Assembly (NCBI GenBank): GCA_017591395.1
Contig: WEDG01000729.1
Span: forward strand, 1-64,000
Reading direction: 5' to 3'
Length of the DNA: 64,000 nucleotides
DNA from: Schistocephalus solidus
Lineage: Eukaryota; Platyhelminthes; Cestoda; Diphyllobothriidea; Diphyllobothriidae
A model generated the notes under the pieces. The model had not been told where the DNA came from. It worked only from the letters and a program-made list of their open reading frames with translations, and ran no database searches. Within the stretch, counting starts at the first letter, position 1, and every line of letters starts with the position of its first letter. A program made the position numbers and the translations under genes. Of this stretch, positions 1 to 50,200 are shown piece by piece.

Positions 1-173
1 TCGAGATTGAGCCCCAAGGCACAACGTTACGAGTGAGTTCTGTCAGTACCTACTAATGTTTTCATCCTTGGAGTCTGCGGTCCGAAACAGTATGGAATTG
101 TGCTGGACTCTGTAGCGACTCTCCCAAACCAAAGGTGTCCTGCTTTTCTCTCCCAAGTGGGGTCCTCATTTCG

Positions 174-346
174 CTGCTGGACTGTCGTGCTGACTGCTGC
201 TCCTCTGCGGTCTGTCTGACTGCGACAGTCCACCCACCGCCTCCTCGGTCAGCGAGGAAACAGGGGTGGCCACGACAGCCGCCTTGAAAGCCTCGCTTTC
301 ACTCCGCGCCCGCCTGTCTGCCCTTCCTGCGCATCGCTGCCTTCAC
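174..346 (+). pseudogene. UBR exon 8 copy in block A, both splice sites lost
   Basis: The sequence matches exon 8 at 46,882-47,113 in opposite orientation. The acceptor AG of block C is CG here (tttcg), several indels shift the frame, and the exon breaks off at CGCATCGCTGCCTTCA, joining straight to intron sequence caaacaaagagtgg. About 450 bp, including the exon end and the splice donor, are missing. It cannot be spliced as in block C. Confidence 0.75.
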
Positions 347-1372
347 AAACAAAGAGTGGTAAAAGCAGTATCCGCTGAGAAAGATAGGCCAGCCCATGTA
401 CATATAAGAAAATTCCCACTTTAATAGAGGAGAAGAAAGGGGGTTCAAATGATAAAACCCTGAGACGGTCCCCGATATCTTCTAGTATTAAACCCCACCG
501 CAGTAATCCCGTTAATCGAGCATTTCAAAACGTTTGTCCCGTATTCCTGAGATATTGCCAAAGTAAAAATTGATTTCTGATTTTAAAACTACCTTGTGAA
601 TTACATGCAGTAAAACCACATATGGTGTGCTAGGGTACCCGTTTACGATCCTAGTTCACGTTGTTGCTTCCATTCAATTCTCCGAAACTATGCGAACCTC
701 CCACGCCTTTGGACTGGTAAGCATACGTTGGGAGTGTGGTGTAGGTGTTCATTGGGAAAGCATAACGGTTTATTTTTAACATTTGTGACCGAATCTCAAT
801 TGGTCGCTGGTCGTTCTGTACAGCTTCATTCAGTTCAGATCCTTCCTATGCTAGATTTTCCAAGTAACTGCTGTTTCCCTCCAGTCTAGCTACATTTTCA
901 CTTCCGACATTGTGCATTCTATCGTGAGAAGTACAATCGTGGAAAAGCTGAAAATGAACATTCTAGGCTTTCATTTGCTCCGTTCTTTTATGAGGAAAAG
1001 AATTAAAATTGCAGTCGCTATGCGAGGATCGAAGCGTGAGACGTGAGCCACGATCGAAACTAGCATCTTCAGTCGTGCGAGAGACTCAATTTATCTCGGC
1101 TTGCGCTCGCTTGCCATCGAGCTCACATCTGGAAATGGAGACGAGAAATGGGAGCAGGGCGATCCCAATGGAGACATCATTAGGGGCAGATTCCCCGGCA
1201 GGTGTCTGATTTCTGCACCGATAAATATTCTGACGCCAATATATCTTCCTCCTCCCTTGCTTCTGGTTTAATCACAAAGCTTATCGGTACCCTGGTGAGA
1301 TCGACTTGCCAGCCATCCACCGTATCTTGGCCGCTGAGTTCGTTTAACATGCTTTTGCGCAAATCTCTACAG

Positions 1373-1718
1373 ACAAGCCGATTGATGAGTTCATCGTCCT
1401 GCTGGCTTACCTGGGCTTGCCACTGGGACCTGAAGACCTGCTCGCTGTACCTCTCGTAGATTTCGATCTGAACGATGCCAATGAGGCACTCAGTGAAATC
1501 CCGGAATGATTCCCCAGTTCTTTGGCACGTCTCACATCACCTCATGGTGTCTTGGTGGGTGCGCTCACACAGTCAGAACCTCCTACTCCAGACTGCGCCA
1601 ACAGTTGACGCCTCGGGAATTACAGTGAGTGCACTTTTGCCCGAGCCGCAGATTTGTGTGCATCTCATTCGCCTGCCTCGCACGTTAGTCTGTTTTGCCC
1701 TGGCGGGCCGAATGGAAG
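1373..1718 (+). pseudogene. UBR exon 9 copy in block A, frameshifted, donor lost
   Basis: The acceptor ctctacag is kept, but numerous indels break the frame (for example in the KSQRND and LITSW regions). After GAATGGAA the donor gtaagt and about 190 bp of intron are missing; the sequence continues with gctagtttctgtgaacg, which in block B lies further into the intron. Confidence 0.78.
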
Positions 1719-2135
1719 CTAGTTTCTGTGAACGTTCCTTTTTGATAGAAAATTCAATTCTGCAGCGTTGGCCATCAACAACTTCAACCGCCGCGCTGGC
1801 CCGTGCGCCTTTGTCGTTCGAGAAAGATTGTGGAAACTTGTCTCCTCGTTCACAGGTTGCATGGAGGACCTTTGAGAGGGGATGGCTCCCGCTTCTTGTC
1901 TATCCTTCTATCAGCCACTAGTGCAACAAGGCACAGTGGTCGACAGGTTGACCATTTTTCTTCTTTATCCAATTTTTGCACTTTTGCCTGATTCTCCTGC
2001 CGTTAGGTTTTACCGTTCGAGACACTACGTGGCTCCGTTTGTCTTCTCCAAAAGTTTCCTGCGATATTGTTACAAGATGCTGCCACTCTGCTGTCCATTT
2101 GCTTCAAACCACTTGCTTCATATCACACTTTTAGA

Positions 2136-2453
2136 AATGAACACCTGAAGCCAGCGCTCCCTTTGTATTCGAGCCTCGTGCCTGTTTGTGGCACAGTCGC
2201 GTCGTTCCTCTCTACCCCAACTCCGCAGCAATCAGTAGCATTGGGGCTTTGACTTTCGCCATCCACGCTTTCGGCTCAGAACGCCAGAGCAGCGACATGC
2301 AAATCCCATCGCAGGCCGTAACCATGCAGGTTACGCATTCATCCTTCTGCTGCAGATGGGTAACCTCTCTCCTCTCCGACCATGCCCGACAGATCACCAA
2401 GTTTCCAGAGCTCTACCGAGATGAGTTTGGTGAACCCGATACCCACCCTGAGG
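2136..2453 (+). pseudogene. UBR exon 10 copy in block A, frameshifted
   Basis: Homologous to exon 10 in blocks B and C: the CLVCGT region, the HAGYAF region and YRDEFGEPDTH can all be recognised but lie in different frames because of single-base indels. An extra C near the end turns DTHLR into DTHPEV. The donor gtatga is still present. Confidence 0.78.
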
Positions 2454-2501
2454 TATGAACTACTAATGAGGCCGAAGGGCGACCGAAAAATTAATAGCTC
2501 G

Positions 2502-3735
2502 GGTTTTCTATTACGATAGTTTCAGATAGTCTTTGAAAAATGAAGTGAATTCTGTACTGATTTTTCATTTTCTTCAGTCAACTGCCCATAAGTGTACATT
2601 TCGTTCGATGTGTTTGGTAAAACCTTCAAAAATAATATATTTCTTAAAAGTATTTACCGAAGTAGCGACTTTTTGGCCTTTCTTTCAATGCAGACGAAAT
2701 TCTAGATTATATTTTGCAGACTCACTTAACCATGCGAAAACTCGCAGCCGTGAAAAACGAACGTGCACAACAAAAGCCGGAAAATATATGCCTATAATTA
2801 GGTACGAAATTTCTATAATAAGTTACCGTTTTTAAAAGAGTGCTTTAGTTAGATGTTTCGCTGTCGAATGCCTGCGTAATTAACGTTTTTCCAAAGTGAA
2901 TTCAAAGAGTGCTGGAACCCTTTGACCAAATTTTCGACTTCACTTAAAGGTTGGGATGCAATTTCTGTTGAAAAATTAAATAACTCACTTTTATATTTCT
3001 TTTGAAGCCTTTTTCGATATCTTTGCTTACTCTGCAGTCTAGTTCTGCTTTCAAAGCACAGAGATTGGCCGATCTTTGCGATAACATGTTAATTTTTCGC
3101 CCCTTTTCAGGTTTTCTTATTAATTTATAGTCAACTGCAGACCGAAATTGTCTTTGCAGTTTCGCGTATCCCCGGACAGCGAAAAAGTCGCAGTCGTATC
3201 ATCGCGTCTCGTATAGTATGCGCGTTTAAAGTCCTAACTATCGGTGGTAAAACAAAAGTACATTCACAAAGTTTGACTACAGCGTTTTCGGGATAAAACG
3301 TCATACCTTTGCAAAACGTGATTTTTAAACTAAATATGCCATCATTTTTCCGAAAACAATGTGAGCTCTCAAAATCTGCATTTACCTGATTTTTCTTTAA
3401 AAAGAAGACAAATTTTGCGTTCTCTGAAGGATATATTCAAATTATTCCGCCTTATATTAATGTTCATTCATAGTACTGCACACAGAAGCAAAATGGCTTT
3501 GATCTGTAGTCCTGCTGTCCTCGTAATGAAAATTCCTGGATAGCAAGAACGACGTCGGCTGCTCGTTTTAGTCCTGCTTTTCCAGAATTAAACTGATCTG
3601 AGAGGTGAACTCTTTATTAGTACACATGTGCGCATCGTTTATTTACATGAGCAGGAGCTCACACCATAAAATTCGCCTGCCTTTGCTACTACCTCGAAAT
3701 TCTGATGTAGGCATTTTATGAGCTAAGCACAATCT
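2502..3735 (+). repeat. AT-rich module, copy 1, upstream of a LINE
   Basis: Starts gttttctattacgat and is homologous, in the same order and orientation, to 54,157-55,030 inside UBR intron 6. Recognisable matches include the stretches around the tagtcaactgcagaccgaaattgtctt and aaaacgtcat motifs. No convincing ORF. In both places it is followed directly by LINE sequence. Confidence 0.75.
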
Positions 3736-3744
3736 ATCAGCAGA

Positions 3745-6700
3745 TTGTGTGTGTAGCCGGATTGGCAAGGGATGTAGGTACTTTGTTGTGGCACCACACA
3801 GATGCATTTTGGTCGCTCCATTTGTCTCTGTACAGGTGGTGGGTGCTCCTGTGGCCGCCTCTAACTGTTACTCCAACTCTCGCACCTGTGGTCTTCGAAG
3901 TTCGGTTCTTCCTCGGCGGCTGCACTCGGGCAACCGTCACGACCGGCGGGCTAGCAGTGGGGTCTCCCGGTGTTTGTAGTGTGTCTCCGTCACTCGGTGT
4001 CGTCTGACTCCAAACTCCTACCTCTCAGAGTCGCTGCGGCGTGCGACAGCGGCTTCGGGTAGGCGTGGTTGGCTAACGGTTAAACCAGGTTGGTTTTTGG
4101 CACTTTCAAACCTGACCGTTGCGCATATGGGAGTTTTCCGGCGGTACGATCTGGGATGTCCGCGCGGCCCATATGGACAGTGACTGTCGTCTTTCCTCGG
4201 GGAAGGCTAGAAAAGAAAAGTGCTTTAAAATTGCTGGTTATCGTCTGCGCTTCGCGGCTCCGTCGCGTGCTCGTCAGGTCATCGCACTACGTTGGGTCGT
4301 GAAAAGCTCAGGCAAACGGGTACGTGCGTCGTCCCTCGCCATACCGACGCCGTGCAACGAAAGTCGCTACACGTCAGCGGCCTGGAAATGTTCTTTCAGC
4401 TGCAGACCAATCCTGGGAGCAACTGGCCTTGACGGGACGGCGCTGGAGCTCTCGGGAACTGGCGCTGCTACAGGGTGGAAATTCACTTTCTCTCAGCGAG
4501 ACTTCAAGATTCTCTGGAGCTGGTTGAGGTGGGTGCCGGCTACTACACCTTCTTCTGGAGCGGCCGGCCAGCAGCAGAGTATCGCGATGCTGGTGTTGCC
4601 TTTGCCATCCGTAACGACAGCCGTGGGACGTCTGCCTGCCTCGCCGCAGGCAGCAATAATATCGCCTGATGAGGCCTCACGCCTGCCTTCTTTCGGAACG
4701 GGCCGGTTCGCCACCGCATCGTCAGCGCTCACGCTCAAATGACGAGCCTCTGATTCGGCCGAAGGATACTCTACTGAGGACCTTGCACGCCTTGCTGGCG
4801 ATCAGGCTGTACCGAAGGACAAAGCACTGATCCTTGATGGCGGTGGACGCGCCGCCTCGGGACGGCGTTACCGCGCTGCCGGGCAGGGATTGCTGGGTCC
4901 CCATGGTCTGCTGGCATGTAACGATAACGGCCTCCTTCTTCTGCGCACGTGTGAACTTTTCCGTCTCCTGCTGACCAGCGCAGCTTCCTGACGCGGGAGA
5001 AGGTCGTGATGAATGCACCGGTCGCAGGCGCTGGCATCTGCTGAGCTATGTTCTCGTTCTCCGGGAGGCGAGATTGACGGGACGCGCTGGTAAACCAAGG
5101 CGTCCTTGATGCCGATGGTTTGGACAGACACCACGTCAGTCATCTCCCAGTGCAGGCTCCTGACTGCAACCCCCGACAATGGCCTTAAAAGGTAAGAGGC
5201 CGCCAGGCATGATTGAATACCATTTCATTAAATTCTGCCTCGCTCGCTGATTTGATTTCGGCAAAGTGCAAAGCACGAGACAAATTGAGGACCTGCCATG
5301 CTCCAGATGATATGCTGCTTACCGTGGAGACAGGATGGTCGTCAACTGCAAAATGTCATCCAGTCGCAGTTCTCGAGGTCCTTTGGGACGCTAACGCCGT
5401 CGACTTACGTGACTGGTTTTTGACGACTGACGTTTCCGACACCAGCCGCTCTGCTTCCGCGGAGAAGAGTGGATCTGGCTACTAAAGCCTGCATGGACCT
5501 TTCGACTGACCACCAGCTACAGCAGTACCGGCAGCCTGCTGGCGGCTTGTACAACAACGCGGAGCTGGCAGTTGCCCGATGATCCGGAAAAGGAAGCTGA
5601 GGAAATCCAGGGTATGCTGAGACTGCGTGAAATGAAAATTTTTCCGAAGCGTCAGCTGGGACTCGCACCACTGCCTCAGCTCTGACGGCACAACACCGCT
5701 GACAGAGAAATCGCGAAAGTCTGGTAAGCGCTGGGCCGGGCGCTCCCGAGAGCAGTCCCACTACTCATCAGCCATCTCCGAGCTGCCGTGACCGCTCCCT
5801 CCGGTAGGATACGAACAATGAGCCTGGATCCCGTACCGCCTTCTCTACCAGAAAGCGTCGGGCCGTGCAGCAGATTTCCAGCCGGTAAATACACCGATCT
5901 GACCTGCAATCCCACCGGAAGTCTCCATAGCGCGGTGAGCCCCGGCTGATGTGCAGAGCTCACAACACTGCTTCCAGGAGATGTGGCAGCCAAGGGCAGG
6001 AGTCCTCCAGGTTTCCAGGGCGCGACCATCGTCCATCTCTGCAAACGGAAGGGGGAACCGGCAACTCTGTGATAATCACAGAGGCAGCGTCTGCGACAAT
6101 AATGGCGGGAACATCTTTCGCCTGCTATGCTTCTCGCACGCGTACTTGGCGACCACTTCCAGAGCAGGGCCTGCTCCCGAGAAAGTCATCTGTGGCTCTG
6201 CCTTTCGCGCGAACAACCGGATGTTATGCTTTGCTGCCCGCCAGCTACAGCATAGGGTGCTGGGAGATTGCGAACTCACCTATCTTGCAGCTGCGTTCGC
6301 TGGCAGCTAGCGCCTTGGAACGCGGTGAGTCGAGCGGACCGTGGAAAGAAGTTGTGCAAGAAATTTGCTGTCACTGAGGCAGGATCTGCACGGACGCTTA
6401 CGGTGCGTCAGCTTTCATGACGGGATGACGTTATGCGTCACTGACAATGGGACGGTATCGAAGCATTCGCAGTGACCAACGGAATGAAAGCAGGGCTGCG
6501 TGCTGGCCCCACCCTCTTCGGTCTCATGTTCTCGGCTATGCTGATGGACTGCCTAACGTGATGAGCAGCCTGGTATCCGCATCGCCTGCAGCTGACGGCG
6601 AGCTGACACAGCGTGTATGCGGGCTCCATCGTAAAGATACCGTGCGTAAGACCTAGGGCACCATCACCCGCAGCAGAGATCATCGCCTCCACTGCCCTCA

Positions 6701-7245
6701 CGCATCCTCGCGCTCACACTACTCGGGCCTATTCTGGTCTACACGCGCATCCATGACGAGATTTGCCACGTGCCGATAACACCGATACACCATGCACGCT
6801 CCGCTATTCTGAGCGCCACAGCCACCCCACTACCATGAATGCATACAGCCTCTACCGATTTCCTCCTACCCACTCGCGCCCCGCAGCGCAACTCACGCAT
6901 CGGTCGGTGGGTCACCTGCGAATCCATCGCACGGGCCTATTAGGACACGTGCGCGACAACCTCCGGGTACACCACGGAGCTCGCTATATCAGTGCACACT
7001 ACCTACACTAATATATCGACAACACCCTCACGTCACTGTTTGCAGGTATACGACGGTTTCCGAGAAACCCTGGCGGATACGCGCGATCCGTCAACCAATG
7101 CACCCTCACGCCTCACATCAAACAAAATGACCGGCTTGGACAGTGGTCTAATGGGTAGTGGGGAAGATGAATCGACGAGCTCAGCGCGATTTTCCTCCTA
7201 TAAACGCAATCTGACGCGCTTTGAAACTATCACGGTGCGCTAAAA
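3745..7245 (+). mobile_element. Decayed near-full-length non-LTR LINE (endonuclease, RT, C2H2 fingers)
   Basis: The plus strand carries a LINE of the same family as the minus-strand one at 16.2-19.7 kb. In order: a 5' region (3,745-3,990) matching 19,710-19,510 reversed; an AP endonuclease remnant (LVEVGAGYYTFFWSG, RDAGVAFAIRND at about 4,500-4,640; NDNGLLLLRTC near 4,930); RT fingers (FQGATIVHLC and NLCDNHRG region, 5,990-6,080); motif B KQGCVLAP at about 6,490; and finger sequences near 6,880-6,960 (THRSVGHLRIHRTGLLGH). Every domain is split by frameshifts and stops, so it is dead. Clade is probably RTE-like by the shape of the RT C-terminus; I am not certain. Confidence 0.75.
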
Positions 7246-7250
7246 TCCGT
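6880..7250 (+). repeat. LINE 3' end shared with block C
   Basis: This terminal LINE segment, including RIHRTGLLGH and the stretch of 'cgacaacaccctcac', is the reverse complement of 42,560-43,085. In block A it is joined to the whole element; in block C only this part remains. Confidence 0.7.
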
Positions 7251-8470
7251 GGCTTTGGAAGGATGCCAACTAACGGGATAACCTCGGACCGCGTGGTCAA
7301 GCGCAGTAGTAGTTTTGTGCGTGGGTAGCGGACTGCGAGAGTCCAGGCTGCAATGGCGCCTTCTTAATGTAGGCTTTTTATGGCACTCCACTCAGTGGGA
7401 TCCGAGCCGGTGTCGGTGGTATCGCCCAGGGCGGCTCCGGTCGCGCCAGCCACCTACGCGCACTCTCCAGCTCCGGTCTTCTTGACTTTGTTTTGACACT
7501 GCGTCAGGTGGGGAGAGAGAGTGCGTAGCTGTACGCGCAAGTGCACTATCCGCTTAAAACTAATTCGCTGCAGTGCATCCGTCCCTGCACCACCTGGTGA
7601 TGGAGCATACGGTGGACTTCGTCGAAATCGACGGTCAGACTGTCATGGTGTAGCTGTTGGCTACTCCGTTTCTCCGAGGCTGGTTGTGCCCGCTTCGTTT
7701 GCAGGTGAGAGGAGGGACGCATCTTTGTGCTTTATCGAGTGGAGCGAGAACTGCAACGACTCCCGAAGGTTCTTGCGGGCGTCAAAGACTCGTTGGACCT
7801 GCACTTACATCTCCTTGCTTTGTATTATCGTTGTGAGGTCTGAAATGTCTCCCATGAACTGAAAACGGCCTTCTTTTCAAAGCAAGATCGCCGTGCGGAT
7901 GCATCAGTTGCATGCCAGGTGAAAGCGGTTACTGCCCGCGGTCGATGTCACCCTAGGCAGAGTTGAAAGGGAGAGTGTGTATTATTATTATTGGTTATGA
8001 GAAAAGGACGTCACTTCTTGGTTTTTATGCAGATTGCTGCATATCCCTGTCGTGTTATTTGGCCTGGCTGTTTTCGTCCAGCCGTGGCGGCAAATTCTCC
8101 TAGTTATCCATCACCAGCCGGTTCGTCATCGACTCGATGCGTTTACTCAAGTCGGTTCAGCTTGATCTTGACATCGAAATTGATAGCGCCAGTTGGCCGT
8201 CTCTCATGTCATGCTATTAAACACGCCTCACTCGAATGCGCGCGTCACCCGGATGTCATCGAAGTTGGAGTCTGAGTCGCTCCTCCAGTCCAGTTTGTCC
8301 TGCTGGCTAAATGGGCTCTCTGCCAAAGTGTTAAGCAGCAGCTGATCACTTAGCAAAATCAAAGCTGGTCTGAGGTGAGGATAGCTATTAAAGCATAATT
8401 AACAATAACGCTGATTGGGGTGACCTGCCGAGATGCAATTTAGTGACTGGTCAGTAACTCTCTATAATTC
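7250..8470 (+). repeat. LINE 3'-tail / SINE-like repeat and UBR intron 10 sequence (block A)
   Basis: Contains a GC-rich repeat (7,290-7,640) also found at 15,450-15,840, 32,775-33,160 and, reversed, at 42,120-42,540, followed by sequence shared with 26,640-27,200 and 41,045-42,110. It lies between UBR exons 10 and 11 of this block. No ORF here is credible. Confidence 0.65.
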
Positions 8471-8479
8471 TCTTTTCAG

Positions 8480-8567
8480 GCGTGGATGCCGCTGTTTCTG
8501 GACGAAACCGCCTATCGGAGATTGAATGAGACCTGGCTGAAGCTTAGAGCTATTCAGTCTGCCCGTG
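8480..8567 (+). pseudogene. UBR exon 11 copy in block A, frameshifted
   Basis: The acceptor attctcttttcag is intact, but one C is missing from the GGATGCCCGCTG region and another from GCCCCGTGA, so the frame is lost and the native stop is out of phase. The rest of the exon (LFLDETAYRRLNETWLK) is recognisable. Confidence 0.78.
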
Positions 8568-9840
8568 ACCCGCTTTGCTTTCACGCAGGAGAGCTCGAGA
8601 ATCACGTCACACCTGGAGCGCCAGACTGATGGTGCTTATCAGATCAGCGTGTTTTTAACTATCTGGGCTCTTTTCCCCATTTCCGCTAGATTGCTCAACC
8701 CGTTTTTAAACAAGATATCATTTTTCAAACCTGCTGCTCCTCTGTCACCGGTTACACACCTGCCTCTAGCCAGACCTATTTTCTGACATTATCCTGCCTT
8801 CTTTCCCAGCGCCTGTAGGGCTTCTTAGCATTCTTTTCCGACTCCTCGCACCGGTACAAGAATTCGTTTGCGCACTTTTCAGAAAGCGGGGTAGATGTTA
8901 AGTCTGGGTTTCTGCGAGGTGTGAGTCTTCAACAGACTGGACACACGCACACAAATAATTTGAGTTTATTTCCCGAGCTCATACTTCTGGGCCAAATGTG
9001 CTGAAGAGGCCATTGAGAGTATGAGGATGACCGCCCAGCGAACAGTATGTCCATAATTTCGTAGCCTGCTAGGCAGGCGGGTTTAATTTCGGCTTTTCGC
9101 TTCTTGTATGCCTTGCACTTTGCATCACATGGGCACGGGCTTGGTGCTTCCATATCCCTGTTTTCCCCGACATCGACATGCTGTAGACCTTCGACATATT
9201 CAGAAGCGTGATCTGTGGAATGATGGCTGTAGGATGGTACAAGGACTTCAATATATTTCAAAGTCGCTTCTGGACGCGTATCGAACCTTGGGGATTTTTC
9301 TGTGCCTTGGGGATGCACAGTACTTCAATATTCGTTTCTGATTCACGCAATGGCTGTGTACATTTCGCTATGGGCTTTTCTGTCCCCTACATTCCCTTTG
9401 TCGAGGAAAATGGTTTGTTATAATTACGTCATACGGCTATGGCATCTATCTTTTGGGGCAGCTGTGACATCGGTATCGTGGTGAGGCTTTGTAATCTTCG
9501 TTTAGTAGTCTCGATTTGAGATTGTAGGGATCGCTGCCCAAGTTGAGTGCCTTCATGAGTGCGGGTTAGACTCGAAGGTCTGTTCAGCGTACCGCCTGCA
9601 TAAACGAGACAACAGAACTTAAAAGCCACATTTCCCACAACCATGTCTACCTTTTATGTATTTTATGTTAGTTGATCGGTTAGTTGGTTACACGGAGACA
9701 TGCAGTTTTGTAGAAAAGGTAGAAAAGCTAAACATGAGTGAACAAATCGAGCATAGCTTTGTCGGCTCACCTGCCAATGTGTCAGTTTTCTAGACTGAAA
9801 TTCTGAACTCAGTGGCAATGTCTTTTTCCATTTTTATTTC
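8568..9840 (+). other. Sequence downstream of UBR stop in block A
   Basis: Reverse complement of 40,930-39,680. It includes a 129-codon minus-strand open frame (8,929-9,318) whose counterpart in block C is 40,290-40,559 plus strand; the two disagree in frame, which argues against coding. I recognise nothing else here. Confidence 0.5.
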
Positions 9841-9940
9841 TGAATAGTTCATATGGCGTCACACCTGGATCACGTGGACGGTATGCGTAGCACCATAGCG
9901 AAAATCTAAAGAGGTTTCACCGTCCCACTTGCTGACTGCG

Positions 9941-10038
9941 CGACCTCGGTGGGATTCGAGAATCCAAGCCAGCAAATGGAAGGCTTTAGTGCAGCCAACT
10001 GCTTTGAGCCAACTTAATTCTGAGGTCACACCGAGCCG
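9941..10038 (-). pseudogene. tRNA-like sequence, disrupted copy (D1)
   Basis: Same tRNA-like sequence as at 27,392-27,463 but with an insertion between the box A region and the 5' acceptor strand, so the cloverleaf ends are separated. Box A-like TAGCTCAGTTGG is broken here. Confidence 0.5.
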
Positions 10039-10187
10039 TTGGTTTATTCACGACTGGGTCAAGTTACCCGCCCTGCCTATTGCAAACGTATGGAATGCAC
10101 TAATTCTGATACAGTAAGTTGACTGCCTTTAACAGGATTTCCTAAGCAATCAATCTAGAATCCACCAGAGGACTACCAGGCACAAGT

Positions 10188-10327
10188 AATCAGTAGAGGA
10201 TTTTTGGTGGATTTGAATAACTCCGCTGGCTAGAGCGTTTGCATATCTAAAGCTTCCCCTTGTTGGCCGCCGTTTTTACAATTGGATCAATAGAATTATT
10301 CAAATCGGCCAAATCTTCTACTAATTT
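10188..10327. repeat. Stem-loop repeat with tRNA-like centre (D1)
   Basis: Arms at about 10,188-10,222 and 10,293-10,327 are imperfect inverted repeats of about 35 nt. Between them is a box A-like CTCCGCTGGCTAGAGCG. Same structure as at 27,624-27,764. Confidence 0.6.
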
Positions 10328-10329
10328 CC

Positions 10330-12360: not shown

Positions 12361-12387
12361 CTTCTTTTGGCATACGCTGCTTTTAAT

Positions 12388-12482: not shown

Positions 12483-12599
12483 TATAACTGTACTTGCCTG
12501 AAGAGAAGTTATCGAGAGCAGCGCGTATGCTCGCCAAGTCGTCTTTTGAATCTTTTAATGGGAATTTTCTTAACTTTAGTATTGTTACTTTATTACAGC

Positions 12600-14760: not shown

Positions 14761-14777
14761 CCTGAATTTTCCTAAGT

Positions 14778-21226: not shown

Positions 21227-21229
21227 CTG

Positions 21230-38439: not shown

Positions 38440-38640
38440 CCTCTTCCAGTCCAGGGACTTTGAACGCCTTCGACAACCTTCCAGAGTTCCATTGCCATCC
38501 GTCTTCCTACGCCCATATCGAGAAACCTCTGGTGACAGGCAGTGATGCCAAAGAACCGAGTCGGCATATCACCCGATAGATCCCACGCGCATTAGCGTCC
38601 AATTCTTCTTAATTTGTGGATTTTAGGGGCTAAATTAAAC
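38440..38640. repeat. Diverged inverted copy of part of D (13,500-13,700)
   Basis: The reverse complement of 38,460-38,655 matches 13,505-13,700 (aatttagcccctacaatcca, gaagaattggacgct, gcatcactgc, caccagagg). It sits exactly where D1 and D2 part ways. Confidence 0.6.
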
Positions 38641-39215
38641 CGCCACCCACAACGAAGAGAGGCGACCTATTACAAGCGTTTGGCATGCTGCTTTGTCAGG
38701 ATTGTTGCCTTGCATCCGAAGACTTGAACTGGCCACTACCACTACTTTGAGAGGACATCTTCTGAAGTTACGTGTGACTAGGGGCGAGACTGGACGCAAG
38801 AAGGTTCTTCTTCTCAAGCAGAGTGATTAAGGCCTGGAATGCTCTGCCTGCAGACATCATGTTCTCATCCGTTGACACTTTTAAACGAAAATTTGGCCGG
38901 TACAGCCATATGTACTACCACTGGATCAGAAACTAACACATTACCCTCAAGCTATCCCATCTCGGAATTTATATAATCGAACATACTACTTCCTTTTTTA
39001 GTAGCACTATACTATAATTGTTTCTTCCGATGTCCTGTAGTGACGAGGAGGAAACCCTTTGTCCAACCTTCATTATCTGCCGGCGTTTTTTAATTTACAA
39101 TGTCAGTGAAATCAATAGGGAGTTCAAAGGCGTCGCCAACCTATCCCTTCAAAAAACTGAATTGAAGTCATGGAAAGCAGAGCGAAAAACGGCAGTCCTT
39201 GGGACACACCCGACA
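38640..39215 (+). mobile_element. CR1-like LINE C-terminal and 3' UTR fragment (D2)
   Basis: Recognisable out of frame: RT C-terminus (GDLLQAFGMLLCQDCCLASE; compare 50,530-50,600), the KVLLLKQS and IKAWNALPADI region (38,790-38,850), then the 3' UTR and end aaaactgaattgaa. D1 has only the last 170 bp of this. Confidence 0.75.
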
Positions 39216-39370
39216 GGAAGCCCGTAGATTAGCTGGTCAGACCAACGTGTGTTCTTCAAGGTCACACCAACTTCAATTTCTGGGAAGTGGCTACGGTTTG
39301 CTAGGAGACCGAAAAATGAAGTCCATTCTATATGGGTGAGCGCATGAGGGCAAATGCTACCAGCGGCCGA

Positions 39371-39604
39371 TCAGATCACATTTTGGGTTGTAAGCCGGAC
39401 GCAGAAAAACCGTCGTAAAAAATCCATGTTCCCGAATTGTTGTAGAACTGTTCTGGATACGCACTTTGTACTGCTTTGAATACAGTTTTCGACAACATAC
39501 GCCGAGAAATGACTGTTGTTCAATCGTCTGTATCCGGGGGTGTACGGTAGCTGTGTTAATTCATGAAGTTCTGTCAGCTTCGCGATGAAATCACTGTACT
39601 TCAA
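39371..39604 (-). other. Repeat-associated open frame of 77 codons (D2)
   Basis: D2 counterpart of 22,453-22,686; reads LPYTPGYRRLNNSHFSAYVV. The replacements keep the frame open, but the sample is too small to infer selection. Confidence 0.3.
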
Positions 39605-40930
39605 AAGTCTACCCTCTCTGCGCCCCCTAAAGTCTTACAGTAGCATCTAATCGACTGTTTCGTAAAAAAATAATAACTGGTTTGGTTGATAAAAAAAGAC
39701 ATTACCACTGAGTTCAGAATTTCAGCCTGGAAAACTGACCCAGTGACAGGACTGGCAAGGCAAAACTGATTTCTTAATCATGTTTAGATTGAAATTTGTC
39801 TACAAAAAAACTGCATGCCTTATGTAACCAAGTAACCGATCAAATTTACTAAAAAATACATAAAAGGTAGACTGGTTTGGAATGTGGCTTTTAAGTTCTC
39901 TTGTCTTGTTTTGCATACATTGTGCTGGACTTAGTCTAACGCGAACTCATAATGCTAATCCTAACCGCAATCCTCACCCCAAATCGAGACTACTTAAACG
40001 AAGATTACAAAGCCTACAACGATACCAATGTCACAAGTGCCCCGAATTGTGAATCGTAGATGCCATAGCCGTATGACGTAATGATAACAACCATTTCCTC
40101 GACAATGAAATGTAGGTGACAGAAAGCCCCATAGCGAAATGTTCACAGCCATTGCGTGAATTATGAACCAAATATTGCAGTACTGCGCCATCCCCAAGAT
40201 TCTACGCCGTCCAGAAGGCAGATCGAAATATATTGAAGTCCTATACCCTCCTACAGCCATCATTCCATAGATAACGCATCCGAAAATATTTGAAGGCCTA
40301 CAGAATGTCGATGTCGGGCAAAAAAAACAGTATGTGGAAGCTTAACCAAGCCCGTGCCCATGTATGCAAAGTGCAAGGCATACAAGAAGCGAAAAGCCGA
40401 AATTCAAACCCACCTACCTCGCAGACTATATTATGGCACATACTGTTCGTTAGGCGGTCATCCTTATCCCTCTCAATAGCCCTCTTCAACAAAAGAGCCC
40501 AGAAGTATGAGCTTCGGGATATAATCAAATTATTTATGTGCGTGTGTCCAGTCTGTTGAAGAATCCCACCCCAGCAGAAACCCAGACAACATCTACTCGC
40601 TTCTGCAAGTGGGCAAAAAATTCTTATTAATGCTGAGAGGAGTCAGTAAATGGAAAAGAATGCTAAGAAGCACAGGCGCTGGGAAAAAGGCAGGATAATG
40701 TCAGAAAATAGGTCTGGTTGAAGGCGGGGTGTATAACCGGTGACAGGGGAGTAGCAGGTTTAAAAAAGGATATCTTGTTTAAAACGGGTTGAGCAATCTA
40801 GCGGAAAAGAGCCCAGATTGTTTATATAAAAGAACCTAATCGTAAAAAATTGATCTGATCAAAAAGCATCATCAGGTCTGGCGCTCCAGGTGTGACGTGA
40901 TTCTCGAGCTCTCCTGCATGAAGCAAAGGG

Positions 40931-41021
40931 TCACGGGGCAGACTGAATAGCCTCATGCTTCAGCCAGGTCTCATTCAATCTCCGATAGGCGGCTTCATCC
41001 AGAAACAGCGGGCATCCACGC
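40931..41021 (-). CDS. UBR ligase exon 11: terminal exon with stop codon
   Basis: Acceptor ttctcttttcag supplies G, completing Arg with the AG left by exon 10. The 91-nt exon reads RGCPLFLDEAAYRRLNETW, then LKHEAIQSAP and TGA. This matches the extreme C-terminus of UBR1/UBR2 (RGNPLHLxxxRYxKLxxxWxxH), though it stops about 20 residues earlier than I remember for the human proteins. The same exon occurs in blocks A, B and D1, always about 91 nt. Confidence 0.85.
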
Positions 41022-44000
41022 CTGAAAAGAGAATTATAGAGAGTTACTGACCAGTCGCTAAATTGCATTCGGGAGGTCACCCTCTATCAGCGTTATTGTT
41101 AATTATGCCTAATAGCGATTGTCGTAAGGTCAGTGAAAAACAATCCAGCCGACGCAAAAGATTGAAGGAGTAGCCAATGACAGTTCAAGCACAAATGAAG
41201 TCAGATTATCAATCCAAACGATGTAAACGCTCAGCAATTAAGCGCAAACGACCACTGGCTATGAGCACGTCATTCCGAAAGGCACGAATGGATGCTATCC
41301 ACCATAAATTGTCCAGGGCTTGAAGTTCCATTAACAGCCTGAGGAATCAATTTGCCAAAATTTGCGAGCAGTGACCATACACCAATATTTTCTTACTTTC
41401 ACCTCAGACCAGCTTTGATTTTTGCTTAGTGATCAGCTGCTGCTTAACACTTGGCAGAGAGCCCATTTAGCCACCAGGACCTATTTGACAAACTGGAATG
41501 GAGGGCGATCAGACTAAACTTCAGTATAATTCGTGTGACGCACATTCATTACGGTGTGTTGAAAAGCATGACATGGGAAACGGCCAACTGGCGCAATAAA
41601 TTGGACGTCAAGATCAAGCTGAGCCGAGCTGAGGAAATGCACTGAGTCGGATGATTAACCGGCAGGTGTTGGATAATTAGGAGCAAACTCGCCGCAACGG
41701 GGTTGGACAGAAAACACCAGTCTAAATAACACAAGACAGGGATATGCAGGACTCTATATCACAAACCAATTAAAAACGTCCTTTCTCATACCCACACACA
41801 CACTCTCCCTGTGAACTCTACCTAGGTGACATCAAGCGCGTGGGCAGTAATGGCTTTCACCTGGCACGCAACTGATGCCTCTCACAGCGATCTTGCTTCA
41901 CAGAAATCTTTCAGTTCATGGGACGACAGCCAGACCTCCCAACGGTATACAAGGAGATATGGTGCAGGTCCAACGAGTCTTGCGTCTACGCAAGAACCTT
42001 CTGTAGATCGTGCAGTCGTCTCGGTTCAAAGTCAATAAACACAAAGTCGTCTCTCCCCTACCTCCAAACGAAGCGGGCACAACCAGCCTACGGAGAAACG
42101 AGTAGCAAATAACACACAATGACAGTTCGACCGTCGATTTCGACGAGGTCCACCGTATGCTCCACACCAGGTGGTGCAGGGACGGTGACTTGCACGTGAA
42201 TTAGTTTAAGTGATAGTAGCCTTGCGTTACAGCTACCGCACCTCTCTCTTCCTCCCCCAACTAAGCCCGGTGTCAAGACAGAGTCAAGAAGACCGGAGAT
42301 GGGAGAGGGCGCAGGTGGCTGGCGCGACCGGAGCCGCACCTGGGCGTACCACCACACCTGGTTCGGATCCCACGGAGTGGGAGTGCCATAAAGGCCACAT
42401 TAAGAAGGAGCCATTGCAGCCTGACTGTCAGTCCGCCAGTCAGCCACTACACACAAAACACACAATTGGGCTGACCACGCGGTCCGAGTTATCCCGTCAG
42501 TTGACAACCTTCCAAGCCACGGCTTTTAGCGCACCATGATAGTTTCAAGCGCGTCAGATTGTTTATAGTGAGGAACATGCGCTGAACTGTCGACCTCACT
42601 CTCTCCCCCACCCCCACCATTAGACCACTGTCCGAGCCAGTCAGTGGCCTGATGTGGGAGTGGGCGCATTCGCCGACGGATCGGCGTAACCGTCTTCGCG
42701 CGCCACAGCACGACCTGGCCCCCATGACGCACACACCAGGATTTACTTACTCAGGAGATATGGAGGAGTTATCGCCGTCTGACTCCCAGTCCACTGGTCA
42801 GCCACTCGACACACACAGCACATACACTGAGCCGACGGTGTGGTCTGGTGGAAGCGTCAGATTCGCAGCCTTCCCAGCCACGGTTTCTAGGAAACCGTGA
42901 TATACTCTGGTAAACGGTGATTGTGAGGGTGTTGTCGATGTATTGGTGTAGGTAGTGTACACTGATGTAGCTAAGCCTCCGGTGGTTTACCGCAGGTTGT
43001 CGTGGAGGCGCACGTGTCCTAATAGGCCCGTGCGATAGATTCGCAGGTGACCGACCAGACCGATGCGTGAGTTGAAGTTACGGGCGCAAATCAAGCAGAA
43101 TAGTGGATGCTTGTTTGAGTTCAGAATAGGATTAAATAAAATGGGCTTATTTTAGCACCCCTTGGGCGCTGCTAATATGTCTAGAAAGCCGGAAAAATGT
43201 AAAACGAGCTATTAATTTTTCAATCGCCCTTCGGCCTCATTAGTAGTTCATACCTCAGGTGGGTATCGGGTTCACCAAACTCATCTCGGTAGAGCTCTGG
43301 AAACTTGGTGATCTGTCGGGCATGGTCGGAGAGGAGAAGGTTGCCCATCTGCAGCACAAGGATGAATGCGTAACCTGCATGGTTGCGGCCTACGTGTGTT
43401 TGCATGTCACAGCTGTGGTGTTCTAGTCGAAACGTGGATGGCAAGTCAAACCCCAATGCTACTGATTGCTGCGAGTTGGGGTAGAGGAACGACGCGACTG
43501 TGCCACAAACAAGGCAGACGCTCGGATACGAAGAAGCGCTGGTTTGAGGGTGTTCATTTCTAAAAGTGCCAGATGAAGCAAATGGTTAGAAGCAAATTAA
43601 CAGCGGAGTGGCATATCTTTGTAACAAAATACCGCAGGAAACTTTTGGATAAGACAACGCAGCTTACCTAAAACCTACAAAGTTTCTTTTGGTGGCCTGT
43701 ACACAAAGTTCGAATAAGTAACTCACAGAAAATAATCAAACTAACATTATGTATCTATGTACTGCAGCAGCGATTATCTACGTAGGGAAAAACTCGCCTA
43801 CTTTTATCGGTTATTCCGGTCAGACGGATACCCAGCCAGCTTCGTGAAAAACTGCCTCAGATATCAGAGACAACCTCAGAGTTTTGACTGCAATGAGGAA
43901 CCAGGGCTGGGGAAATTTTTCCCACTACCCTATATGCAGGGAATCTCCGAAGTGATCACCCGACCATTAAACCGGTTTGGTATCACCGTATCCGTCAGGT

Positions 44001-44251
44001 CGGCGTCCTCGCTGCGCGCAACGCTATTCCGAGTAAATGACTCCATACCCAAAGAGCAAAAAACTAATGCCATTAATCGCATTGCATGTGCTTATGTTGG
44101 ATATAGTGGCCAACGACAAGGGACTCAGATTAACGAACGTAAACTAACCATCCACCCACGTAACCCCTTGTCACCGTGCTTGCGCATGCCCTTGAGTGCG
44201 ACCAGGGTTTCAGTTGGGATAAAACTGAAGTGATTGCGATGGCTAACAAAA

Positions 44252-44297
<46 letters not shown>

Positions 44298-47200
44298 CTA
44301 ATTGAAGCAAAAATGCGCGTCCCCGGGCATAAATCAGAAGAAGAGGCGATCACGGGAACAATAGGTTTAATATCCTGACGTTTCAAAATCAAACAAGATT
44401 CCATCGTCGGAGGTAGGTTCAGTACGGCGCCTCACAGTATTTATGGGTTCTGAACATGCTGGCTCTACAGCTATTCGTGCAGGATGCACTGCAGGGGGGC
44501 GGGGGAGTTAGTTGCTGTCCTGCTGATCATTGATTTTTATTCTCCCTCGCCTCGCCTGGGGGCTGTGTCGGGATGGCAAGTGTCATTGACCTCGTCTGCA
44601 TTGCCCGCGTTTGGTGTACCGGAACCCGCATGTCTGTTTCTCGTCCCTCGTTTGAATCTGTCCGTGCACGGCTCATCGGTGGTTGCTGAGTCATTGCCGG
44701 TGTCTCCGTTCCTATCGGGTTGGAGACGCTCATCATCGGTTTTCGTGCGCAAACTAAGTTCACCTGCGTCCACGTTCATGCCTGGCCGGAGGTCTTGCTG
44801 GTTTGCGTTCTCCGCGGTTATCCCCTCGAATGTGTTGGTGCGTGGCCTAGGTTCACTCAGGCATGTGTTCTGGCTCGTTATGCGATTGCTTGCCACCGCG
44901 AACAGTCTGACAGGAACAGGACTAGTGGTAGAAGGGAGGATGTTTTTCATCCTGCACAATAATGCCAACAACCCGCATTCGTCGGTCAAGGTTTCCAGGC
45001 AAAAAAAGCATTCACCAGAGGAAACTGTCAATAGGTTGGTTAAGGATGAAACCAATGGTCAATAGTTAAAAGTTACTAAGAGAAGGGGGAGTAGAGACGG
45101 AACTTACTTCCATTCGGCCACCAGGGCCAACAGACTAACGTGCTCCCGAGGCAGGCGAATGAGATGGGGTACACAGATCTGCGGCTCGGGCAAAAGTGGG
45201 GGCACCACTGTAATCTGGGGCGTCAACTGTTGGCGTAGTCTGGAGTAGAGGTTCCGACTGTGTGAGGAGCGACCCACAAGACACCATGAGGTGATGAGAC
45301 GTGCCAAGCAGAGCGAACTTGAGGAATCATTCCTATCTGGGATTTCACTGAGTGCTCCTCGTTGGCATCGTCCAGATCGCAATCCACAGAGAGTACAGCG
45401 AGCAGGTCTTCAGGTCCCAGTGGCAAGCCCAGGTAAGCCAGCAGGACGATGAACTCATCAATCGACTTGTCTGTAGAGATGTGCACAAAACATATTAAAC
45501 GAACTTAGCGGCCAAGATACAGTGGATGGCTGGCAAGTCGATTCACCAGGGCAAGAATTGAATGGTACCGATAAGCCTGTGATTAAACCAGAAGCAGAAA
45601 GCAGACCTGCCGGCGAAGCTGTCCCCTAATGATGTCTGCATTGAGAGAACCCTGCTCCCAATTCGTCTCCATTTCATATGTGAGCTCGGTGGCAAGCAGG
45701 CATAAACCAGTAAATTGAGTGTCTTGCACGATTGAAGATGCTAGTTTCGATCGTGGCTCACGTCTCACGCTTCGATCCTCATAGCGACTACAAGTCAATT
45801 CTTTTCCTCATAAAATGACGGAGCAAGGGAAGGCCTAGAATGTTCATTTTCAGGCTTTCCACGATTGTACTTCACGATAGAATGCACAATGTTGGAAGTG
45901 AAATTTCAGATCGACTGGTGGAAACAGCAGTTACTTGGAAAATCCTAGCATAGGAAGGATCTGAACTGAATGAAGCTGTACAGAACGACCAGCGACCAAT
46001 TGAGATTCAGTCTCAAATATTGCAAAAATAAACCGTTATGCTTTCCCAATGAACACCTACACCACACTCCCAACGTATGTACCAGTCAAAAGAGAGCGTG
46101 GGAGGTTCGCATAGTTTCCGGAGGTGAATGAAGCAACAACGTGAACTAGGATCGTAAACGGGTACCCTAGCACACCATATGTGGTTTTTACTGCATGCTC
46201 CAATTCACAAGGTAGTTTTTAAAATCAGAAATCCAATTTTTTTACTTTAGCTGGCATATCTCAGGGAATACGGACAAACGTTTTGAAATGTATTCTCGAT
46301 TAACGAGGATTACTGCGGTGGGGTTTAATACTAAGTATCGAGACCGTCTCAGGGGTTTTATCATTTGAACCCCCCTTTCTTCTCCTCTATTAAAGTGGGA
46401 ATTTTCTTATATGTACATGGGCTGGCCTATCTTTCTCAGCGGATACTGCTTTTTACCACTCTTTGTTTGTATTACCTACAATAAGAGTTGGGCACGAGCA
46501 TGGTACTAAAATCTCATAATTATCCTCTTTTCAAGAATAAAAGATACAATTTATACATGAATAAAATTTAAAAACAAAGCAATTTGCTACCGAGTGACCT
46601 CACAAAAGAATACTTCTATGCCAAAAAAGATTTACGAAGTTAGAAGGGCATCGAAACCAAATGGGAAAATGCATGCTACTTAAGTAGCCATTCTTCCGAA
46701 TGTGGTTTCTGCAGGCGGCCGGAAAGAAGCTCATTCAGCATGCTGAAATGACTGAAATCCTTTGGGATTATGCTGCATGCGACAACCTCATAAAAGTATT
46801 CAATTCTGGTTGATAAAACGTTTTAGAATTTCGGTAAAAATTTCTTGAGCTATTGAACATGTAATGAGAAGTGAAAACTACCGGTGGAGGGCTGGCAGAG
46901 TGCGGTGGGCACCTCGATGTTGGTAATCTCCTGCAGGATGAAGGCAGCGATGCGCAGGAAGGGCAGACAGGCGGAGCGCAGGTAAGCGAAGAGGCTTTTC
47001 AAGGCGGCTGTCGTGGCCACCCCTGTTTCCTCGCTGACCGAGGAGGCGGTGGGTGGACTGTCGCAGTCAGACAGACCGCAGAGGAGCAGCAGTCGGCCAC
47101 GAACAGTCAGCAGCTAAATGAGGACGCAGGAGAGAGAAAAGCAGGACACCTTTGGTTTGGGAGAGTCGCTACAGAGTCAACACAATTCCATACTGTTCGG

Positions 47201-50200
47201 ACCGCAGACTCCAAGGATGAAAACATTAGTAGGTACTGACAGAACTCACTCGTAACGTTGTGCCTTGGGGCTCAATCTCGAGCCCCGCCAGCAGCCGCAC
47301 TGGAAAGACAACAAACCTATGATGCACTGGTTTAGAGCGTTGAACGTCTAACCGACAGGTCACGGGGACGAGTCTTGGGCGGGAGACCACATAGGATTGA
47401 GTATGGCTGGCTGATGACGGCTAATAAGCTAGAAATTGTTATTCCAGTCTCCCTCGTCTTTGTCGGTCATGTCATTCTAACCAAAACATTACCTGGAATC
47501 GGCCTCCGTCTGTAAGCTCAGCTGTTATTGCAGGGTAGGTTTCAAACACACGACCGCCTATCCTGCTGTATAGCACTAGAGACAATGAGAAAGCAGGGGT
47601 CACTAGATCGGGAGTAGTGAAATAAGGTTTATTTCATAAGCGACGGTGAAAGAAGTGGTTTTGAGACTTTACGTGCTGTTCGTTGTCACAATCCAATTAA
47701 GCTTTCTCTTAATGGCTGTTTTGAGGAACTCATTTTTTTTGGATTTAATTGCGGTAACTGATTCGTGCAAACGGTAGACTTGTAAATGCACTTCGTGAAC
47801 AACATTCGTTTTACGAAAAGAATTCGGTAAAGGGCGATTGTACGAACACTGCAGCGAAAAATGCTGTACCATTCGCTGCTCAATTCAGTGACTTACGTTT
47901 TAGTATGCATTAACCTGTTACCCAAAATCTTTAGTTGTGCCAGTTCTCCGCATGTGTTGGCTTTGGGATGTGCCTGTTATGCCAACGCCATTGAGTGCTT
48001 AATCTCATTGTGTATTTTCTGCGTCAGGCTATGCGTTGTCGTCAAGGTCAGTTCTTCGAGGTTTGTTTTCCCGATTCGCTCAGAGTTTCAGAAAACAGTT
48101 GATGCGCCCAAGCAGGCCAATCCAGGCTCTAACTTCTCGTCAGGCTTGCTTAGGAGTATCTACAAACAGGCTGAGTCATTCATTATCCATTATCAGCATC
48201 GCGCGCGTTTCGAATTTAGGTTCAAATTTCTGAACTCTAAGGAATTTATTTTCTTCAAGAATTTTGGCCTACTGTCCACTATTAGCTTTCCGGTACCAGA
48301 AACTGGATTTCATTCAACGATAACTTCGTCCTCACAACTTTTCAACGGATTTTCGCAGATCACGGACTTCCATCGAGTCGGCTCTCCCTCGTGTCGACTG
48401 TTTGAGAACCGAGACAAGCAACTTCTTCAAAGGCTGAGTTACTCTACTAAACTTATTCGTTGAAGGCATCATATTTCGAACACACTTGATAAAGATCTCT
48501 CTGCCGAATTCATCTAACACCGTATTAGGACGAAAATATCCAGCCTACTCCTACAAGATAACAGCCAAGAGTAGTGACGCAGAGCCTCAAGAACCACTCA
48601 AGAATAAGCAAAAGGCGAAAGGTAAGACCACAAGGACGGGTCGCAAAAACCTGAAGGGAATGATTTCAAACTCGCCAGAAAAGCAATCGAAGATACAAAA
48701 TGAAATTGATCAGGATATACGAATGCATGAGCTAAAAAACACGGTAGATAACGATTAACTAAAATAGTATCCAGGTCACGCGCGCTTCATCAGAGGCAAA
48801 TATAGAGGAGCTGTTGCCCACCGAATGGATGACACAAAGTGGACCCACAGCGGTAGTACCTCCCCAAGCCAAAGACGTTGAAGCCAGTATTGGGGAAGCC
48901 CCAACATTAGCCAGGCAGGACGTCATGGTGGATGTGTGCTGACTTATGTCAGATATGGCCTGCTCGTGTCAAAAAAAGGAAAAGCTCGCGTGCGAAACTG
49001 AAGCCATATGGCTCACCATCAGAACGCCGGGGTCCCAAGCACTTGAGATCCGAACGGTCTACCAACCACCGAGAAACGATCCGCAGTCAGATAGTAGTCT
49101 GATAGATGATTTAGAATCGTTTGCTAGTCGAGCCGAAGGTATGATTATAGGCAACTTTAACGCTCCGAATATCGATTGGAATCTGAGCTCGGCACCAGGC
49201 TCGGAATTAAACTTCGATCGCCGCCTACTAGAAGCTATACACAAACGCTTCTTAACTCAACACGTCCTGGCTCCGACCAGAATACGTGAGGGGCAAAAAG
49301 CTAATTGTTTGGACCTTGCATTGACAAAGGCGCCTGACAGCGTAGATGTTGTGAACTGTCTATCCCCACTGGGCAAAAGTGATCACGTAGTCCTACAATG
49401 GGAATATTCACTCTTCAATGTCCCCTATCGAAGCATCACAGTCTACTCTTTCAAGCCTCCCTCGCTGCAGGCAGATTGCAACCAGATTGGAAGACCGCAT
49501 GGATTTCCCCGATACATAAAACAGCAGCCGGGCTTCCACAAATAACTACAGGCCGGTAAGTCTCACCTCCATATGTTGCAAGATTATGGAGCGAATCATC
49601 AAACGTGAACTGATGCAGTTTCTGGAGCGGCATCATCTTATCTCTGACGCGCAGCAAGGATTCCGCAGAGGAAGGTCCTGTTAAACTAATTTGCTCTACT
49701 GTCTGGAACGATGGACCCGAGCGGTCGATGAAGGAAATGTAGTGCACGCAGTGTACATAGACTTCAAGAAGGCCTTTGATAGCGTGCCTCACCAACGTCT
49801 CCTATACAAACTCAACCGTAAGGGGCAAGCTTTTGAAGTGGATCGAAAACTTCTTGATTGGGCGATCTCAGATTGTCCGTCTTGGCGATCAACAATCGGC
49901 GGAGGTGGCGGTTGAGATTTGGGTTCCTCAGGACTTCCTTATATATATTGATGACTGCGTAACTGGCTTGGACTGTGACACCGCCATGTTTGCTGACGAT
50001 ATAAAGCTTTGGAAGGTCATCCACAACGCAGCTGATGAAGAAAATCTACAGACGAACTTGCATCGAATCGAGGAATGGTCGCACAACTGGCTCCTTCCAT
50101 TCAATGCTACTAAGTGCAATATTCTGCGATTCGGCAGAACCAGCTCCGGGCACCAGATAATTTACTATCTGGACGACACACCGCTACCAGAGGTAGAGGC

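What the first reader, a model, noticed from the sequence alone, without database searches (positions are those of the whole stretch)
1..47281. UBR ligase 3' end present as inverted copies in an A-D-B-D-C array
Exons 9-11 of one E3 ubiquitin ligase occur as plus-strand blocks A and B and minus-strand block C, separated by two copies of a 13-kb block D. Only C is in line with exons 1-7. Such an array could produce truncated ligases carrying only the autoinhibitory C-terminal domain, or antisense RNA to the main gene.
Basis: partly seen in the sequence, partly recalled or inferred. Interest (0 to 1): 0.75.

Follow-up and report, generated by a model that had tools for sequence, protein, structure and literature searches.

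The report
Tapeworm UBR gene tail, partly false array
A tapeworm ubiquitin-ligase gene does have extra copies of its tail end that lack its front, but the outermost copy in this window is a noisy assembly mosaic rather than a separate copy, so the five-block array cannot be taken at face value.

Summary
The window is the first 64 kb of a 130,878-bp contig (C612) of a 603.7-Mb genome, most likely the tapeworm Schistocephalus solidus.

Block A (1 to ~12.4 kb, including the start of D1) is not an independent copy. It has 49 private indels in about 2.1 kb (B 6, C 8). Its diagnostic bases switch from C-type (1-~700) to B-type (~1000-1724) to the type of another contig, C6395 ("K", 2039-9700). The noise stops near 12.4 kb, and base 1 is the contig start. 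A is best read as a chimeric, poorly polished contig end.

K is a clean, diverged, 3'-partial copy. A public S. solidus gene model is almost identical to C and not to K, which argues for a paralogue and against an allele. Sparganum proliferum has two front-truncated gene models of the same gene, in a separate clade.

Best reading: real, lineage-specific partial duplication of a UBR1/2-type gene, plus a false duplicate at the contig end. Antisense control and truncated ligases were not shown.

The parts
1..12396 (+). Block A and the first 2.5 kb of D1: noisy mosaic at the contig's left end (C-type 1-~700, B-type ~1000-1724, K-type 2039-9700); contains garbled e8-e11
9901..22896 (+). Block D, copy 1 (clean from about 12.4-12.57 kb on)
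21116..21264 (-). Copy E: last exon (e11) remnant with acceptor and stop, about 74% DNA identity to A's e11
22009..22073 (-). Copy E: 65-bp fragment of e10 (81.5% to C, 78.5% to B)
23325..27322 (+). Block B: 3'-partial copy holding e9-e11 only
24357..24731 (+). B, exon e9 (open; tblastn limits)
26061..26402 (+). B, exon e10 (open; tblastn limits)
27200..27292 (+). B, exon e11, last coding exon
27352..39815 (+). Block D, copy 2; lacks E and has a longer LINE 3' piece (38661-39166)
39693..47281 (-). Block C: 3' end of the in-line UBR1/2-type gene, e8-e11 and 3' flank
40937..41026 (-). C, exon e11
43253..43561 (-). C, exon e10
45107..45477 (-). C, exon e9, with a 2-bp insertion relative to B and K that shifts the frame
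46886..47113 (-). C, exon e8 (missing from B)
52784..60188 (-). C gene: upstream exon pieces e1-e7 inside the window, with the second part of the RING at 60188-59729

Best explanation
In a tapeworm, most likely Schistocephalus solidus, one UBR1/2-type ubiquitin-ligase gene (C, about 47 kb) has been partly duplicated around its own 3' end. The real pieces are B (last three exons), E (an old remnant) and K (a longer 3' part on contig C6395), set among retroelements and two copies of block D. Block A is not one more copy. It is a poorly polished contig end whose sequence runs through C-, B- and K-type sequence in turn. Shown: the mosaic, the noise and its end near 12.4 kb, the clean copies B, C, E and K, and public S. 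solidus sequence of C type with a further e10 copy behind it. Inferred: the species and assembly, that the mosaic arose when the assembler mixed reads of several copies, that K lies left of D1 facing C, and that repeat-mediated rearrangement made the copies. B and E are most likely decaying by-products; K may still be under constraint.
For: A-private indels 49 against 6 (B) and 8 (C) in about 2.1 kb, and 49 against 3, 6 and 5 (B, C, K) with K added. Type switches along A: 16 of 17 C/K sites C-type at 1-345; 7 of 8 C-private and 0 of 9 B-private states at 346-700; 9 of 10 B-private, 1 of 21 C-private and 0 of 17 K-private at 1001-1724; 10 of 12 K-private at 2039-2505; 61 of 67 K-type at 8700-9700. 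Base 1 is the contig start. K is clean and shares A's extra insertion and lack of the PLE piece. Public S. solidus P0010 pairs with C (99/96) and not with K, and carries an extra e10 after its own last exon. C against K: 61 replacement and 41 silent changes. Nine chaperonin genes show no second copies in this assembly. A similar noisy echo at another contig end (C5436).
Against: In A 3.45-7.9 kb identity to K, indels left out, falls to 86-96%, and three of the 300-bp windows (3901, 5401, 5551) had no match of 120 bases or more, so that part of A may come from something other than K. K ends where the single-copy part of the gene begins, as an assembly bubble between two haplotypes would. P0006, another S. 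solidus protein, is K-like in e4 but closer to C in e5 and e7. No reads, depth or RNA could be examined.
Confidence: 0.65

Rival explanations
1. Haplotypes, not paralogues: K is the other allele of C's 3' part, joined to D in the flipped direction because the inverted repeats B and C can recombine and invert D2; the array then mixes two haplotypes.
For: K follows C612 from about 46.6 to 65.0 kb, and no second copy was found to the right of that (65.05-68.0 kb outside a repeat, and 75.0-75.8 kb). K's tail meets D's start and C's tail meets D's end, which an inversion between B and C would give.
Against: C and K differ by dS 0.069 and 6.2% of 11,315 aligned columns, high for alleles, while public S. 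solidus P0010 is almost identical to C. Nine of nine chaperonin genes have no second copy. BUSCO duplication 0.8% if the assembly is ASM1759139v1. P0010's extra e10 copy suggests C-type and K/B-type sequence in one scaffold.
Confidence: 0.17
2. B and D1 are false duplicates as well: the assembler strung repeat paths together and only C, K and one D exist.
For: D1 and D2 are nearly identical over 8.0 kb (38 mismatches, 34 gap openings) but not at the right end; a noisy echo occurs at another contig end.
Against: B is clean and has private states of its own: 14 of 1283, 20 of 447 and 16 of 214 compared columns. It shares a PLE piece with C that K lacks, and lacks e8, which both C and K have. D1 holds E, which D2 lacks.
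Confidence: 0.12
3. The A-D-B-D-C array is real throughout, and A is a fast-decaying pseudogene or a true recombinant of C, B and K.
For: The blocks are contiguous in one contig. Gene conversion could make a mosaic.
Against: Private indels are about as frequent as private substitutions divided by two to three in A (49 indels, 118 substitutions) but far rarer in B (3 and 50) and C (6 and 42) in the same alignments. The noise covers genic, repeat and D sequence alike and ends near 12.4 kb, which decay of a gene copy would not do.
Confidence: 0.05

Closest known systems
False duplication of the error-laden ('homotype') kind in long-read assemblies (PMC9516828, passages seen)
   Same: An extra, error-rich copy of sequence present elsewhere, here at a contig end.
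   Different: A mixes at least three source copies; the read-depth test that defines the class could not be run.
UBR1/UBR2-type N-recognin E3 ligases
   Same: C-terminal domain PF18995, RING-type exons and colinearity with a full-length paralogue on C3112.
   Different: B, E and K as seen here lack the UBR-box part; no ligase activity was or could be tested.
Sparganum proliferum gene models SprV_0100503400, 3600, 4500 and 4700
   Same: Several models of the same gene, 87-92% alike, close in locus-tag number on one 123-Mb contig; 4500 and 4700 start at the same internal exon and lack the UBR box.
   Different: Other 5' breakpoint than K; orientation not seen; separate clade (100/100). 3400 and 3600 may be two halves of one gene.
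Full-length paralogues in the same genome: C3112 (public protein P0013) and C2638 (public protein P0009)
   Same: Same family and the same exon order (C3112).
   Different: Old paralogues, about 43-68% alike in protein to C.

Membership tests
False (homotype) duplication: block A | Excess of errors against the other copies | tested here: met
   Private indels A 49, B 6, C 8; with K added 49, 3, 6 and 5
False (homotype) duplication: block A | Sequence is explained by copies present elsewhere in the assembly | tested here: inconclusive
   Type switches C, B, K, but 3.45-7.9 kb fits K at only 86-96% and three windows gave no match
[quoted passage not shown]
   No reads held
Haplotig (false heterotype duplication): K against C | Divergence of the order of the species' heterozygosity | tested here: inconclusive
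   6.2% mismatches, dS 0.069; the species' heterozygosity is not known here; nine chaperonin genes show no second copies
Haplotig (false heterotype duplication): K against C | Another individual's single gene equally close to both | tested here: not met
   P0010 pairs with C, 99/96; P0006 is mixed
UBR1/2-type E3 ligase: C gene | C-terminal PRT6_C domain | tested here: met
   7.7e-21 with B's exons; 1.7e-5 for C's e10 alone; P0010, the public C-type model, 3.3e-32
UBR1/2-type E3 ligase: C gene | UBR box | tested here: inconclusive
   The exon at C612 88259-87885 aligns to the C3112 paralogue and resembles a UBR box by eye; alone it gives no Pfam hit
UBR1/2-type E3 ligase: C gene | RING domain | tested here: inconclusive
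   Two exon pieces joined give weak RING hits, best 0.0021, below the curated cut-off; colinear with C3112
UBR1/2-type E3 ligase: K and B | UBR box and complete RING | tested here: not met
   Absent from B; K's contig ends at the C612 65.0-kb equivalent, before those exons

The most novel reading that the evidence does not exclude
Diphyllobothriid tapeworms have, separately in at least two genera, kept front-truncated copies of a UBR1/2-type ligase (RING-side exons and the C-terminal regulatory part, without the UBR box) next to the full gene, and these act as regulators or decoys of the full ligase.
Probability: 0.1. Interest if true: 0.6.

Novelty: new member of a known kind. Interest (0 to 1): 0.3.

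Why it matters
It separates a real, lineage-specific partial duplication of a protein-degradation gene from an assembly artefact that would otherwise be counted as one more copy. Indel-rich contig ends in this assembly should be discounted in gene counts. The recurrence of front-truncated models in Sparganum proliferum makes the locus worth one expression check.

Tried and rejected
Looked for relatives in IMG/VR viral contigs: 7 pattern matches, none confirmed. Rfam at gathering scores: 0 matches. Tandem repeats: one AT array. A fold-back read was considered and rejected, because B and C lie about 12.4 kb apart and are diverged. A as a true recombinant was rejected because of its indel load. 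K as an allele is kept as a rival.

The copy number of D in the genome was asked for ten times and never answered, nor was a search for other contigs with the D1-E-B junction. So copies of D elsewhere are unknown.

Papers: searches on Sparganum with ubiquitin gave 2 papers and on tapeworm segmental duplication 16 papers, 10 listed (listings only); neither listing showed this duplication, and no wider claim of absence from print is made. The Ligula genome paper is not held. PMC12301072 and PMC12471100 were seen as passages.

Full report
WHAT WAS CHECKED. The description of the sequence is right as far as it goes.

THE GENE. A query made of the B exons (first residues partly C-like) hits Pfam PF18995 (7.7e-21, profile positions 258-451 of 451) and PDB UBR1 and UBR2 (6.6e-7 and 4.3e-5). 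Comparison with a paralogue on contig C3112 shows colinear exons from C612 88259 to 40937, so the gene is about 47 kb long and the window holds only its 3' part. The exon at 88.2 kb resembles a UBR box by eye and aligns to C3112; alone it gives no Pfam hit. The last four coding exons are called e8-e11 here: C has all four, B the last three.

THE SOURCE. The window is C612:1-64000 of a genome of 603,688,359 bases in 8019 contigs; C612 is 130,878 bp long and base 1 of the window is its first base. Public S. solidus proteins match this assembly closely. P0009 matches C2638 at 98, 99, 87 and 79% in four stretches. P0013 matches C3112 at 91-100% in 20 of 25 tblastn stretches; the other five, at 68-81%, include long ones that look like runs across introns. 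P0010 matches C at 96-100% in several stretches and its e10 is identical to C's. The species is therefore most likely S. solidus. A published S. solidus assembly was made with Flye from Nanopore reads (mean coverage 20x), polished with nanopolish and Pilon, with 15,357 scaffolds, 625,207,408 bases and BUSCO duplication 0.8% (PMC8400842, passages). That G000 is that assembly with short scaffolds left out is my inference. That P0010, P0003, P0006 and P0009 come from another, European, assembly is recalled, not shown by a call.

BLOCK A IS NOT A COPY LIKE THE OTHERS. In three-way alignments of three exon regions (about 2.1 kb of A), A has 36+9+4 private indels, B 2+3+1, C 6+2+0. With K (contig C6395) added, A has 35, 10 and 4; B 1, 1, 1; C 5, 1, 0; K 2, 2, 1. 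A also changes type. Of 17 sites at 1-345 where C and K differ, A is C-type at 16. At 346-700 it has 7 of 8 C-private, 0 of 9 B-private and 2 of 20 K-private states. At 701-1000 it is in between (6 of 10 B, 2 of 8 C, 0 of 11 K). At 1001-1724 it has 9 of 10 B-private, 1 of 21 C-private and 0 of 17 K-private. At 2039-2505 it has 10 of 12 K-private, 2 of 23 B-private and 0 of 12 C-private. At 8381-8599 it has 4 of 4 K-private. At 8700-9700, 61 of 67 sites are K-type. A sliding comparison agrees, with 4-32 gaps per matched 300-bp window in most of 1-12.4 kb. It also shows the weak part: between about 3.45 and 7.9 kb, identity to K with indels left out is only 86-96%, and windows 3901, 5401 and 5551 had no match of 120 bases or more. 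Against D2, gap openings per 500 bp of D1 are 17, 15, 24, 17 and 11 up to 12396, and 0-6 in the 500-bp windows from 12572 on. For comparison, K against C (11 pieces, 11,315 columns, both clean) has 6.2% mismatches and 3.0 gap openings per 500 bp. A is best explained as a chimeric, poorly polished contig end. How assemblers produce such ends is recalled knowledge; error-laden false duplicates as such are described in PMC9516828 (passages). A second example: bases 43-3010 of C5436 repeat C2638 with 28 mismatches and 44 gap openings.

WHAT IS REAL. C and its upstream exons lie in clean sequence. B is clean and its three exons are open. K, on C6395 (33,461 bp), matches the start of D1 (12991-9901) and A in reverse, then window 46.6-63.6 kb and C612 63.8-65.0 kb. 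A query of window 57-59 kb finds C612 and C6395 (94-96%); the other matches, of the 40 candidates scored, cover only about its last 300 bp at 74-84%, a repeat. C612 75.0-75.8 kb has one match in the genome. C612 65.05-68.0 kb has no second match outside a repeat at about 65.5-66.7 kb (only the best candidates are scored). The last ~36 bases of C6395 leave the homology and look, by eye, like a repeat seen elsewhere in the window. In the sequence held, K is thus a 3'-partial copy without the UBR-box exon and without the exon at 66.9 kb that holds the first RING cysteines (named by eye).

SELECTION. C against K over 11 exon pieces: 61 replacement and 41 silent changes, dN 0.032, dS 0.069. The replacement share, 0.60, is below the neutral share of about 0.76 by about 3.8 standard errors (my arithmetic). 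B against C: 34 and 15, within about one standard error of neutral; B against K: 30 and 16. C has a 2-bp insertion in e9 and K a 1-bp difference in e8 that shift the frame; P0010 is in frame at the e9 place. Sequencing error and true change cannot be told apart here.

PARALOGUE OR ALLELE. Control: the chaperonin family PF00118 gave 42 exon matches, which I tally as 9 N-terminal and 9 C-terminal ends (C2261, C2294, C5260, C3630, C3657, C2399, two genes on C187, and C4936 with C2911 taken as the two ends of one gene), that is nine genes and no second copies. In a tree of e1-e7 (15 rows) P0010 and C are sisters (99/96) with K outside and the three together at 100/100; in a tree of e9-e11 (12 rows, C left out because of its frame shift and P0010 standing for it) B and K pair at 83/84 only. 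After its own last exon P0010 carries an extra e10 that matches K in 94, B in 92 and C in 91 of 103 residues. P0006 matches K in 100 of 101 residues of e4 but C better in e5 (90 against 88 of 92) and e7 (121 against 118 of 127). P0003 is 86-89% to K, B and C. So public S. solidus data hold more than one copy type. The chief point on the other side is that K stops where the single-copy part begins, as an assembly bubble would.

OTHER TAPEWORMS. Of the 17 proteins found with the long query, three are Sparganum proliferum SprV_0100503400, 4500 and 4700; SprV_0100503600 came. Of these four only 3400 has a UBR box by Pfam (PF02207, 5.6e-12). 4500 and 4700 start at the same internal exon, and 4500 is fused to a reverse-transcriptase frame (RVT_1 1.1e-5, below the curated cut-off). 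3400 and 3600 may be two halves of one gene. The three long ones form their own clade (100/100), with 4500 and 4700 sisters (97/95). So partial duplication happened separately in the two lineages, or the copies were homogenised. These are gene predictions, and their orientation was not seen.

HOW IT LIKELY WORKS. B and E look like by-products of rearrangement in repeat-rich DNA; a review of diphyllobothriideans gives repeats as about half of these genomes (PMC12471100, passages). K could be a gene or a young pseudogene. A truncated ligase acting as a regulator is conceivable because yeast Ubr1 has an autoinhibitory domain (PMC3172311, passages), but nothing here tests it. Antisense RNA is not supported: each copy is sense in its own direction.

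LEFT UNEXPLAINED. The middle of D1 and D2 (12572-20571) differs by 38 mismatches and 34 gap openings in 8.0 kb, but the right end (22082-22896) by 47 mismatches in 815 bp. K, D1 and D2 compared at 12572-12991 differ only by 4 D2-private sites in 418 columns; just left of it, K- and D2-private sites are about 2% each. Recent conversion and an assembly echo would both fit.

Noticed in passing
window 12572-20571 and the D2 counterpart 29849-~37900: D1 and D2 are nearly identical in the middle (38 mismatches in 8.0 kb) but about 6% different at the right end: conversion or a second assembly echo.
   Followed up: partly
window 25248-25772 (-), 43745-44233 (+) and 61475-61852 (-): Pieces of Penelope-like elements: a weak GIY-YIG hit at the first (0.017, below cut-off), the others named by eye. 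One piece sits at the same intron place in B and C and is absent from K.
   Followed up: partly
window 48943-50645 (+): LINE with an endonuclease (PF14529, 4.9e-10) and a reverse-transcriptase piece (PF00078, 0.0035, below cut-off) in an intron of the C gene; its 3' end recurs in D1 and D2.
   Followed up: no
L047 (C5436:43-3010) against L048 (C2638): Another contig start that repeats part of a different UBR paralogue with more gap openings (44) than mismatches (28): false copies at contig ends may be common in this assembly.
   Followed up: partly
C3112 100.7-154.2 kb; C2638 9.9-12.1 kb: At least two further, old UBR-family paralogues in the same genome.
   Followed up: partly
Sparganum proliferum P0014 (SprV_0100504500): Gene model in which a reverse-transcriptase/GIY-YIG frame runs into a front-truncated UBR copy; fusion or annotation error.
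   Followed up: no
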